Shown: in pieces, positions 10,776-13,358 of the stretch
Numbering within the stretch: the stretch's first letter is position 1
Layout of the letters: each line of letters begins with the position of its first letter
Source of the DNA: Rhodospirillaceae bacterium
GTDB lineage: Bacteria > Pseudomonadota > Alphaproteobacteria > UBA8366 > GCA-2717185
Length of the DNA: 22,790 nucleotides
Assembly (NCBI GenBank): GCA_002717185.1
Contig: PBDC01000036.1
Location: 61,742-84,531, forward strand
Reading direction: 5' to 3'
Notes under the pieces: generated by a model
The model's database searches: none
What the model saw: the letters and a program-made list of their open reading frames with translations, nothing else
What the model was told of the DNA's origin: nothing
Program-made: the position numbers and the translations under genes

Positions 10776-11784
10776 TATCCCATCAGAAGCGGATTACGCC
10801 CGCGCTAACGATACGCTGGACTTTCTGAGGGGTGCTGTCGAAGCGGCGGCCTTTCAGCGCATGCGACAGGGACATGCGGCACTGTCGGTCGTTCTCATCA
10901 CGGGTTTCTTGGGCACCGGCAAGACGACCTTGATGTGCCGCCTCGTCTCCGGCAATCATGGGCTGCGCCTCGCCGCCATCGTCAACGATATGGCCAATTT
11001 GAACGTCGATGCCGCCCTAGTTGCGGAAGCAGGTGCTGGACAAGGCCTTGAAACCATGGCTCTGGCAAATGGCTGCGTATGTTGCAGCCAGTCTGGCGGT
11101 GTCGCCAGGACGTTGGCGGACATTCAGGCCTGGGAGACCGCCCCCGACTGCGTGTTACTGGAGGCTAGCGGCGTCGCCGACCCATCCGCCCTCGCAGCGG
11201 TTGTCGACGGCATGGAGGGGATCCGCCTCGATACGGTCGTTGCCGTCGTCGATGCGGCAGGCGGTTGTGATGATGCCGATCCCTTGGTCGAACGGGGCGT
11301 TCGCGCCGCAGATCTAGTTCTGATCAACAAGACGGACTTGGTCGCACCGGCAGCGGCAGCAGCTTTGGAGCGCGAAATGTTGGCGCTGGCGCCGAAGGCG
11401 GCGATACTGCGCACCGTCGATTGTGCCGTCCCAACGGGGTTGATCTTCGACCCGCCACCGCGCGATGGGAACGATTTGGCGTCAGGTTTGGTGTTACAGG
11501 ACGATCGCTTCGCCACCGTCGAATTAATCCAGACGCAGCCGATTTTGCGTCCCGAAATCGAAAACTTACTCGCCACGGCACCGGTCGATCTCTATCGCGC
11601 GAAGGGAATTTTGCGGCTTACCGGCGTGCCCTCGCCCGAGTTGCTACAGGCCGTCGGGCGTCGCTGGCGCTGGACACCTGCGGGAACTGACGCGGCACGG
11701 CTGGTCGGCCGCCTTGTGCTGGTAACGGCGGCGGATGCCACCGACATCGCGGCCCATTTCAAGGCGATTTTGGCACAATGTTGA
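10768..11784 (+). CDS. G3E-family (CobW-like) P-loop GTPase, putative metallochaperone
   Basis: A 338-residue protein from ATG 10768, overlapping the amidohydrolase stop by eight bases. Walker A is GFLGTGKTT (residues 46-54), the metal-binding CxCC motif is GCVCC (102-106), the switch region is EASGVADP (132-139) and the guanine-specificity motif is NKTD (187-190). A CobW C-terminal domain follows from about residue 245 (FATVELIQ, then DLYRAKGILRLTG). G3E GTPases deliver zinc, cobalt, nickel or iron to client enzymes. The overlap suggests the client here is the metal-dependent amidohydrolase just upstream, which is an inference. The frame is open for another 85 codons upstream, inside the amidohydrolase gene, but there is no reason to start there. 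Confidence 0.9.
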   Translation: MADIPSEADYARANDTLDFLRGAVEAAAFQRMRQGHAALSVVLITGFLGTGKTTLMCRLVSGNHGLRLAAIVNDMANLNVDAALVAEAGAGQGLETMALANGCVCCSQSGGVARTLADIQAWETAPDCVLLEASGVADPSALAAVVDGMEGIRLDTVVAVVDAAGGCDDADPLVERGVRAADLVLINKTDLVAPAAAAALEREMLALAPKAAILRTVDCAVPTGLIFDPPPRDGNDLASGLVLQDDRFATVELIQTQPILRPEIENLLATAPVDLYRAKGILRLTGVPSPELLQAVGRRWRWTPAGTDAARLVGRLVLVTAADATDIAAHFKAILAQC

Positions 11785-11970
11785 CGTAGCCCTCACTTAG
11801 CGTGGCCATTAGAAATCGGTATGGATGCAACGGAAGATGCCGCCGCCCAATAAACCTTTCTGATCACAATATTTTTAGAGGTCGTGCACAACCGCGATAT
11901 TGCTTTCCAGAATGCGCCCCCGCATAGTCCCGCCATCCTGGCTTTAATCCGCCACGGTTATTTTACGAAA

Positions 11971-11976
11971 AGGAGG
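11971..11976 (+). promoter_or_regulatory. Strong ribosome-binding site of the selenoprotein gene
   Basis: AGGAGG lies four bases before ATG 11981. It fixes the start 44 codons upstream of the in-frame UGA and shows that the segment before the UGA is really translated, rather than the gene starting at an internal codon after it. Confidence 0.75.
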
Positions 11977-11980
11977 ACAT

Positions 11981-12448
11981 ATGTCCGATAAACTAGGGAT
12001 AGGCGACGCCTTTCCCGACATCACGCTAAATGTTGTCGGTGGCGGAACGCTGGAGCTACCAGGAGATCTTGATACCAAGTACAAGGTTATTCTGTTCTAC
12101 AGGGGTCACTGGTGACCCTACTGTCGCCGGCAGTTGGCCGGCTTCGCAGAACATAAGGCAGATCTTGACAAGCTTGGTATTTCCGTCGTCGCAGCGAGCA
12201 TCGACACCGAAGATAAATCCAAGGAAGTTGCCGATGAGGTTAACTTTCCGGTCGGTGAAGGCGTTTCCCGCGAAATTGCGGACGCGCTGGGATCGTGGTG
12301 GGAAGACCGCCGCAGCATTATCCAGCCGTCCGAATTCATCCTCGGCCCCGATAACAAGGTTATGGCGTCCAGCTATGCGGACGGCCCGCTGGGCCGCATG
12401 CAGGCAGATGATATGGTGAAGCTGATCGGTTTCTACGAATCTCGCTGA
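11981..12448 (+). CDS. Peroxiredoxin-like selenoprotein (in-frame UGA = selenocysteine 45)
   Basis: A 155-residue thioredoxin-fold peroxiredoxin-like protein (AhpC/TSA family). The reading frame is continuous from ATG 11981 to TGA 12446 apart from one UGA at 12113-12115. That codon sits exactly where relatives have the peroxidatic cysteine: the sequence reads ILFYRGHW-U-PYCRRQLAGF, giving a UxxC redox motif (U45, C48). Downstream features also fit the family (GISVVAASIDT, VNFPVGEGVS, PSEFILGPDNKV). A stem-loop with a G-containing apical loop begins right after the UGA. Such proteins reduce peroxides using thiols, and selenocysteine makes them faster. Automatic gene callers would wrongly split it or start at 12134. 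A strong terminator follows. Host selAB, selC and selD genes are needed but are not in this window. Confidence 0.88.
12113..12149 (+). promoter_or_regulatory. Selenocysteine UGA and bacterial SECIS-like hairpin (peroxiredoxin)
   Basis: UGA at 12113-12115 is followed by GCCGGC (12126-12131), loop AGTTG (12132-12136) and GCCGGC (12137-12142), a perfect six-pair stem. CTG (12121-12123) and CAG (12147-12149) can add a lower stem. The loop starts 17 bases after the UGA and has G as its second base, as expected for bacterial SECIS elements that bind SelB. Confidence 0.7.
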
Positions 12449-12475
12449 ACGGGGGACCGTAGATACTTGCCTTCA

Positions 12476-12507
12476 GGGGCGGGCGGCAATATCCCGCCCC
12501 CCCTTTT
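12476..12507 (+). terminator. Rho-independent terminator after the selenoprotein gene
   Basis: GGGGCGGG (12476-12483) pairs perfectly with CCCGCCCC (12493-12500) around a nine-base loop, followed by CCCTTTT. It lies 28 bases after the stop, between two convergent genes. Confidence 0.8.
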
Positions 12508-12542
12508 CAATATCGCGCGGGCATAGCCTCTCAAAACCGCGC

Positions 12543-13358
12543 CTATACCTCTGACAAAAATGGTAGCACCGCCTCACAAAACGCCTTTGGTTGTTGGCGA
12601 AACATACTATGACCGGCGTTCGGGATAACCGCCAACTCTGCGTTTGGGACCAAATCCGCAAGAACCTTCGAAATGACTGGCAATACTCCTTTCGTTTCCG
12701 CCCCAACGACAAAAAGTGTTTTTAATGAAAGTGATAGCGCCTCTTCCTTACTGTATGGTTGCAGAGGATCTCCACTCTGAACAACCAAGGTATAGGCGTT
12801 ATCCTCGCGCATCTGTTGCTCTACGGCAGGTAATGTATCCCAAGTGCCCTCACCGCCAATCCCATCGACGAACGACCGCAATCCCTCCACGACATCACCA
12901 GCAACAATTTTTTCCGACGCCTGCGTCACAATGGCACGCACGCCTGGGAGTGCACCCACTTCTTCGGAGGGCATTAGAGAAGCCTCTAGTGCGCCTGCCG
13001 GTTCAGCCAGAACCAATTTCCGAAGCAAATCTGGACGTCTTAACGCCAGACGGAAGGCGAGCAGTCCCCCCCGCGAATGCCCCATCAGGTCGACCGGTCC
13101 AAGCTCCAAGCCCTCTATAAACGCAATTACATCGTCGATATGCTGCGCCAATTTGAATTGTCCACCTTTGCCGTCCCAGCGTTCCGGGAAGTAATGCCGC
13201 AGACTGGGGATGATTAATCGTCGTCCATCCGACATTCCACCAAGAATTCCAGACCAGGCACGAAAATCGTTTAGCGCTCCATGAACGCATACCACTGGGC
13301 GGCCCTGACCAATGTCGAGATAAGCTATGTCGTAGTCGTTTACTCGGAGAATTTTCAT
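12543..13358 (-). CDS. Alpha/beta hydrolase
   Basis: A 271-residue alpha/beta-hydrolase-fold protein. ATG 13358 has GGAGG six bases before it and begins MKILRVNDYDIAYLDIGQG, so it is preferred to the longer frame from 13382. The oxyanion motif is VCVHGALNDFRAW, the nucleophile elbow is GHSRGG, and the last catalytic histidine is in PNAGHSMFRQQP. The acid is probably the glutamate in the segment LFVVGAETKGVLP, where relatives usually have D or E. Such proteins hydrolyse esters or are dehalogenase/lactonase-like. The substrate is unknown. It is convergent with the selenoprotein gene and divergent from the DUF1330 gene, sharing an intergenic region rich in inverted repeats. Confidence 0.9.
   Translation of the reverse strand: MKILRVNDYDIAYLDIGQGRPVVCVHGALNDFRAWSGILGGMSDGRRLIIPSLRHYFPERWDGKGGQFKLAQHIDDVIAFIEGLELGPVDLMGHSRGGLLAFRLALRRPDLLRKLVLAEPAGALEASLMPSEEVGALPGVRAIVTQASEKIVAGDVVEGLRSFVDGIGGEGTWDTLPAVEQQMREDNAYTLVVQSGDPLQPYSKEEALSLSLKTLFVVGAETKGVLPVISKVLADLVPNAELAVIPNAGHSMFRQQPKAFCEAVLPFLSEV

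What the first reader, a model, noticed from the sequence alone, without database searches (positions are those of the whole stretch)
11981..12448. Peroxiredoxin-like selenoprotein hidden by an in-frame UGA
The frame runs from a strong ribosome-binding site through one UGA at 12113-12115 to a normal stop. UGA occupies the peroxidatic Cys position (GHW-U-PYC), making a UxxC motif. A perfect six-pair hairpin with a G-containing loop starts 17 bases after the UGA, as in bacterial SECIS elements. Standard annotation would start the gene after the UGA and lose the active site. Sec-containing Prx-like proteins are known, so the family is not new, but this member and its host deserve attention.
Basis: partly seen in the sequence, partly recalled or inferred. 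Interest (0 to 1): 0.8.

Follow-up and report, generated by a model that had tools for sequence, protein, structure and literature searches.

The report
Selenium-containing redox enzyme gene, read through UGA
A bacterial gene appears to use a UGA "stop" codon to insert selenocysteine into the active site of a small redox enzyme, a kind of protein predicted from ocean DNA since 2005 whose relatives are still often cut short in protein databases.

Summary
Real: 11981-12448 encodes a 155-residue AhpC/TSA-family protein with one in-frame UGA (12113-12115). Relatives settle its meaning. In-frame UGA sits at this codon in 23 of 23 full-length matches in one order sample and 21 of 22 in a class sample. 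Of 42 UGA-form sequences, 37 keep all six stem pairs, with compensatory changes at two pairs; 0 of 81 Cys-form sites do. All 21 UGA-form genomes of the 385-genome class sample have selA, which 56 of 385 do. The window's own genome is not held.

It is a UxxC Prx-like selenoprotein, a kind described in 2005 and 2008.

Extra: in relatives the gene often neighbours UGA-containing AhpD-like and deiodinase-like genes and selAB (21 of 31 stretches hold at least one of these or selD); the window probably keeps only the tail of the AhpD-like gene. New member of a known kind.

The parts
11812..11853 (+). Probable remnant of the 3' end of an upstream AhpD-like (CxxU) gene: EIGMDATEDAAAQ and stop; a breakpoint lies between it and the end of the CobW-like gene at 11784
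   Evidence: MAFFT alignment with the 3' ends of the AhpD-like genes of L001 and L002, with an internal gap of about 33 nt; the blastn match of L001 to the window begins at 11832, so 11812-11831 rests on the MAFFT alignment alone
11970..11976 (+). Ribosome-binding site AAGGAGG
   Evidence: Sequence; the same motif at the same place in L108-L112
11981..12448 (+). Prx-like selenoprotein gene, 155 residues (MSDKLG...GHWUPYCRRQL...FYESR)
   Evidence: Pfam AhpC-TSA 80.2 bits, E 1.6e-22; codon-position bias of differences both before (199/108/543) and after (545/358/1321) the UGA over 22 relatives
12113..12115 (+). UGA read as selenocysteine (residue 45), first position of the UxxC motif
   Evidence: UGA at the homologous codon in 23 of 23 full-length matches of the order sample and 21 of 22 matches of the class sample
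12122..12124 (+). Cys48, partner of Sec45 in UxxC; aligns with the peroxidatic Cys of true peroxiredoxins
   Evidence: Alignments; invariant column among the 29 sequences
12126..12142 (+). bSECIS upper stem-loop: GCCGGC, AGUUG loop, GCCGGC
12476..12507 (+). Terminator-like GC-rich inverted repeat with a short T run after the gene
   Evidence: By eye on the sequence and largely kept in L001; the terminator scan did not flag it

Best explanation
The gene makes a small redox selenoprotein of the Prx-like (UxxC) kind. Shown computationally: an AhpC/TSA-family frame, UGA conserved across many species, a conserved covarying hairpin at SECIS distance, and selA in every UGA-form genome of the class sample. 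Inferred: SelB with Sec-tRNA(Sec) binds the hairpin and decodes UGA 12113-12115 as Sec; Sec45, at the N-terminal position of the motif, is the attacking nucleophile on a disulfide or hydroperoxide; Cys48 resolves it as a selenenylsulfide; a thioredoxin-type reductant recycles it. The substrate is unknown; thiol:disulfide or hydroperoxide reduction is most likely.
For: Single UGA in an otherwise open AhpC-TSA frame. In the order of relative G001, 25 of 27 genomes have some match, 23 a full-length one, and all 23 of these carry in-frame UGA, one of them as tandem UGAUGA. In a class sample 22 of 385 genomes match at E<=1e-20; 21 have UGA, 1 (36% identical) has Cys. All 21 have selA against 56 of 385 overall (Fisher 6e-20, uncorrected for kinship); the Cys genome is not among the 56. 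In the order, 22 of the 23 UGA-form genomes have selA; the other is a 1.3-Mb assembly. G001-G003 have selA, selB, selD and tRNA-Sec. SECIS: 37 of 42 with all six pairs, 0 of 81 Cys-form sites; covariation. The four constraints of the published bSECIS model (PMC13188914, passages) are met: 5-nt loop, 6-bp stem, G at loop position 2, 16 nt from UGA to loop, MFE -16.3. Fold model pLDDT 94.1, peroxiredoxins as best PDB matches.
Against: No whole genome is held for the window, and no selA, selB or selD and no tRNA-Sec was found in its 22.8 kb. Five of 42 UGA forms break one of the six pairs. Single-sequence folding is not significant. Two of five covariation measures do not exceed the shuffles. One UGA-form genome of the order lacks a selA match. 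No protein-level evidence. The substrate and the nucleophile role are inferred; no NCBIfam model is reached over its cut-off.
Confidence: 0.93

Rival explanations
1. A sequencing error or nonsense mutation: the organism really carries TGC/TGT or a dead gene.
For: The window's own reads and genome are not available.
Against: The same UGA in 41 further sequences, the codon-position bias of a conserved protein on both sides of it, a SECIS hairpin absent from the 81 Cys-form sites, and selA in all 21 UGA-form genomes of the class sample.
Confidence: 0.02
2. UGA is read as tryptophan (an alternative code), so the motif is WPYC, as 25 database entries show.
For: 25 of 120 listed homologues carry W at this position.
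Against: Some W entries are 88-89% identical to proteins whose DNA has UGA here (P0012 to L126, P0006 and P0010 to L143; the other 22 are 52-84%), which fits gene callers that used a UGA=Trp table (inferred; their DNA was not seen). The window gene and several relatives end in TGA themselves. The SECIS and the selA link are not explained by a Trp code.
Confidence: 0.02
3. A true peroxiredoxin whose peroxidatic residue is Sec45.
For: Prx fold, AhpC-TSA match; Sec45 may well react with peroxides.
Against: Alignment puts C48, not residue 45, on the peroxidatic Cys; the Prx PxxxT/SxxC pattern (recalled) is lost: R41 in place of Pro, Sec45 in place of Thr. Literature separates UXXC Prx-like from TXXU Prx.
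Confidence: 0.15
4. The protein belongs to one selenium-dependent pathway with the AhpD-like and deiodinase-like selenoproteins encoded beside it in relatives.
For: 7 of 31 stretches have the UGA-containing AhpD-like gene and 11 of 31 the UGA-containing deiodinase-like gene; 18 of 31 have selA and/or selB (stop types).
Against: 10 of 31 stretches show none of these genes or selD; the window has at most a remnant of the AhpD-like gene and no deiodinase-like gene. Co-location may reflect joint transfer of the Sec trait.
Confidence: 0.3

Closest known systems
Prx-like selenoprotein with UXXC motif (Sargasso Sea set, 2005; 'Prx-like 1', pfam00578, UxxC, in the Global Ocean Sampling set, 2008)
   Same: Same Pfam family and same UxxC motif with a bacterial SECIS. 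The GOS paper reports 225 Sec members and one read with Prx-like 1 beside AhpD-like 2, an arrangement like that seen here in relatives (passages).
   Different: The published sequences could not be compared directly (supplements not available), so identity of subfamily is inferred. In the alphaproteobacterial sample here the close family is almost wholly Sec (21 of 22 matches), whereas the GOS table lists 2,740 Cys homologues for Prx-like 1.
Sec-containing peroxiredoxin (TxxU)
   Same: Prx family and Sec active site.
   Different: There Sec is in TxxU; here Cys48 is at that position and Sec is three residues earlier.
PRX_like2-type CxxC proteins (cd02970) and animal PRXL2 proteins
   Same: CxxC in a Prx fold (recalled from memory, not tested).
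   Different: Sec in place of the first Cys; membership not tested.
ResA-type thiol:disulfide oxidoreductases
   Same: Sec45 aligns with the first Cys of CxxC.
   Different: Weak similarity only (E 5e-6 to 4e-4); export signals were not tested.

Membership tests
Bacterial selenoprotein gene | In-frame UGA at a position held by Cys in homologues | tested here: met
   Cys in P0005, P0008, P0009, P0093 and at the 81 Cys-form sites
Bacterial selenoprotein gene | bSECIS: 3-9 nt loop, 4-16 bp stem, G in the first two loop positions, 16-37 nt from UGA to loop, MFE <= -7.5 | tested here: met
   5 nt, 6 bp, AGUUG, 16 nt, -16.3 kcal/mol (model as quoted)
Bacterial selenoprotein gene | selA, selB, selC, selD in the same genome | tested here: inconclusive
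   Window genome not held; all four present in the related genomes G001-G003
Bacterial selenoprotein gene | Sec shown in the protein (75Se or mass spectrometry) | not testable with these tools
   Needs experiment
Prx-like (UxxC) selenoprotein | AhpC/TSA family domain | tested here: met
   PF00578, 80.2 bits over a cut-off of 26
Prx-like (UxxC) selenoprotein | UxxC in place of the Prx TxxC/TxxU | tested here: met
   U45-P-Y-C48; alignment; definition in the passage
Prx-like (UxxC) selenoprotein | Sequence similarity to the published Prx-like 1 members | not testable with these tools
Typical peroxiredoxin | PxxxT/SxxC active site with peroxidatic Cys (pattern recalled) | tested here: not met
   C48 falls on the peroxidatic Cys, but Pro is R41 and Thr/Ser is Sec45
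NCBIfam curated families, its selenoprotein models included | Score over a curated cut-off | tested here: not met
   Best match 37 bits against a cut-off of 211; SelL_rel_redox 23 against 120

The most novel reading that the evidence does not exclude
In a group of alphaproteobacteria whose named members here are metagenome-assembled genomes, a selenoprotein island (AhpD-like CxxU, Prx-like UxxC, deiodinase-like Sec) sits with selAB(C) and works as one selenium-dependent peroxide or thiol-redox pathway in which the Prx-like enzyme is essentially obligately Sec-based; the window shows a derived state in which all but the tail of the AhpD-like gene is gone.
Probability: 0.3. Interest if true: 0.5.

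Novelty: new member of a known kind. Interest (0 to 1): 0.35.

Why it matters
It confirms a Sec enzyme kind that gene callers damage: of 120 listed homologues 89 are short proteins aligning only from residue 51 or later and 25 carry Trp at the site, and no NCBIfam model scores the window protein over cut-off. A 2006 survey gave formate dehydrogenase as the only selenoprotein of the Sec-decoding Alphaproteobacteria then known (PMC1794560, passages); the relatives here show other ones, with the Prx-like gene often beside the Sec machinery. The link of selenoprotein genes to selAB gives a testable hypothesis for what keeps selenium use in these bacteria.

Tried and rejected
Own-genome searches for sel genes: no genome held. 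Rfam (gathering thresholds) and ARAGORN on the window: nothing. Host placement: the alanine racemase of the window has no match at E<=1e-20 in 27 genomes of the order of G001 (no positive control, as its output warns), and the amidohydrolase matches in 13 of 27 at only 28-36% identity, so the window's host is not shown to be in that order; it may be elsewhere, the flanks may be foreign, or the contig may be chimeric. Promoter/terminator scan of 11780-12560: nothing useful. Trp decoding and sequencing error were considered and rejected (see rivals). Literature: 8 searches; I saw listings with the starts of abstracts, and passages only of PMC2398784, PMC13188914, PMC1794560 and PMC1088965. The passages name Prx-like/AhpD-like clustering; I saw no mention of a deiodinase-like/Prx-like/selAB cluster in them, which is not proof of absence. 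PRX_like2 (cd02970) features and the Prx active-site pattern are recalled, from no call.

Full report
What is in the sequence. The + strand frame 11981-12448 starts at ATG after AAGGAGG (11970-11976), has one internal TGA at 12113-12115 and ends at TGA 12446-12448. Read through, it is a 155-residue protein that scores 80.2 bits for Pfam AhpC-TSA.

The hairpin. GCCGGC (12126-12131), loop AGUUG, GCCGGC (12137-12142). Ten bases, not 17, separate UGA and stem; the loop starts at the 17th base. The published bSECIS constraints as quoted in PMC13188914 (passages) are met: 5-nt loop, 6-bp stem, G at loop position 2, 16 nt from UGA to loop, MFE -16.3. Taken alone the fold is unremarkable: 26 of 200 shuffles fold as well.

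Relatives with DNA. A scan of one genome per species kept the best 80 of 115 loci. The three closest, L001 (UBA7314, 86%), L002 (UBA830, 84%) and L003 (a Filomicrobium MAG, 70%), all have UGA at this codon. In the order of G001 (the genome of L001), 25 of 27 genomes have some match and 23 a full-length one; 22 of these have one TGA and one (G028, L130) has two in tandem, TGATGA, where others have TGG-TGA. In a class sample, 22 of 385 genomes match at E<=1e-20: 21 with one TGA (one of them, G035, matched over residues 2-95 only), one (G365, L158, 36% identical) with Cys. The counted set of UGA forms is 42: the window, L003, 23 from the order and 17 more from the class sample; L001 and L002 are the same loci as L108 and L110 and are counted once.

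SECIS by comparison. Of the 42, 37 make all six pairs and 5 (L123, L141, L142, L144, L156) break one; loops are AGUUG (34) or AGUUA (8). One pair is G-C or A-U; another is G-U, U-A, A-U or G-C. On the 35 distinct rows, 97.6% of cells pair against 90.2% in shuffles, and the covariation score is 0.294 against 0.161, 0 of 500 shuffles as high for either; sliding the partner by 1-3 columns leaves 6-53% of cells paired. Two measures do not exceed the shuffles (number of pairs with double changes 189/500; further pair types 424/500). At the pair with most types, one side is the third base of codon 50 and the other the second base of codon 53, so residue 53 (Ala, Val or Asp) mostly follows the opposite base; 3 of 35 rows do not pair there. 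Of 81 Cys-form sites in 78 loci, none makes the six pairs and 2 make five. These Cys forms are distant (24-41% identical for L004-L080; 36% for L158); the closest Cys proteins (P0005, P0008, P0009, 65-67%) have no DNA here, so the control is not from close kin.

Sec machinery. selA, selB, selD and tRNA-Sec are found over cut-off in G001, G002 and G003, with a selA-selB-selC run on one contig in each; in G001 that 54-kb contig also carries the Prx-like gene and selD, and in G002 the run and the Prx-like gene share a 40-kb contig. In the order, 25 of 27 genomes have selA, among them 22 of the 23 with the UGA form; the other, G024, is 1.3 Mb. In the class sample 56 of 385 have selA, including all 21 UGA-form genomes (Fisher 6e-20, not corrected for kinship). 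The window's own genome is not held, and no selA, selB, selD or tRNA-Sec was found in the window itself, so for the window the machinery is inferred.

Coding on both sides. Over 22 relatives, differences from the window by codon position are 199/108/543 before the UGA and 545/358/1321 after it (L129 and L130 left out, order-sample loci and L003 only), the pattern of a protein conserved across the UGA.

Active site. The alignments put C48 on the Cys of AhpC FTFVC (4ql7) and of SPVC in 2cx3, and residue 45 on the Thr or Ser three earlier; against ResA, residue 45 falls on the first Cys of CxxC. The Prx Pro is R41. So this is a UxxC, thioredoxin-like site in a Prx fold (model pLDDT 94.1; best PDB matches peroxiredoxins, TM about 0.8), not Sec at the peroxidatic position. 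The 2005 Sargasso Sea paper describes a Prx-like family with UXXC instead of TXXU (PMC1088965, passages), and the GOS paper lists Prx-like 1, pfam00578, UxxC, 225 Sec members (PMC2398784, passages).

Database damage. Of the 120 listed homologues (601 found), 89 are short proteins that align to the window protein only from residue 51 or later, 1 is a longer one without the site, 25 carry W, 4 carry C and 1 carries Q at the site. The W entries are probably UGA read with a UGA=Trp table: P0012, P0006 and P0010 are 88-89% identical to proteins whose DNA has UGA, the other 22 are 52-84% identical to their best such protein. Their own DNA was not seen.

Neighbourhood. In 31 stretches taken around the gene in relatives (all 23 of the order, G003, and 7 of the 17 further class genomes; uneven flanks, so counts are lower bounds), 18 hold selA and/or selB, 7 an AhpD-like gene, 11 a deiodinase-like gene, 3 selD, 21 at least one of these and 10 none. 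All 7 AhpD-like and all 11 deiodinase-like copies carry exactly one in-frame stop, TGA. The deiodinase-like gene lies between the Prx-like gene and selA in 8 of 11. The AhpD-like protein (L002) scores over cut-off for NF041238 (446.7 bits; just under cut-off for Pfam CMD), the deiodinase-like one (L111) for PF00837 (86.4 bits; under cut-off for NF038285). In the window, 11812-11853 probably matches the tail of the AhpD-like gene and the CobW-like gene ends at 11784; no other part of the AhpD-like gene was found in the window. Clustering of Prx-like and AhpD-like selenoprotein genes is in print (passages).

Verdict. The genomic island in relatives is the part most worth following.

Noticed in passing
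L130 (G028:C49:2090-2545): Tandem TGATGA at the site (others have TGG-TGA), so either two adjacent Sec codons or a single-base difference or error; the hairpin is intact with a U-A pair.
   Followed up: partly
L164, L167, L172, L174, L176-L181, L188 (deiodinase-like); L161, L163-L167, L183 (AhpD-like): UGA-containing deiodinase-like genes beside the Prx-like gene (8 of 11 between it and selA) and UGA-containing AhpD-like genes upstream of it.
   Followed up: partly
window 11784-11853: Breakpoint: end of a CobW-like gene is followed by what look like the last codons of an AhpD-like selenoprotein gene.
   Followed up: partly
window 1-22790: G+C runs from 35% at the left end to 64% at 21-22 kb, and two tested flanking genes have no close match in the order of G001: mosaic genome or chimeric contig.
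   Followed up: partly
L131 (G004:C68:11069-11194): Decayed copy of the Prx-like gene lacking the active-site codons, in a genome that has selA.
   Followed up: no
G003:C32:132-1451 and C32:1680-1771: A second partial selB match (under cut-off) and a second tRNA-Sec in G003 besides those on C35; duplicate or mixed assembly.
   Followed up: no
P0047: Database homologue with Gln at the Sec position; its DNA was not seen.
   Followed up: no
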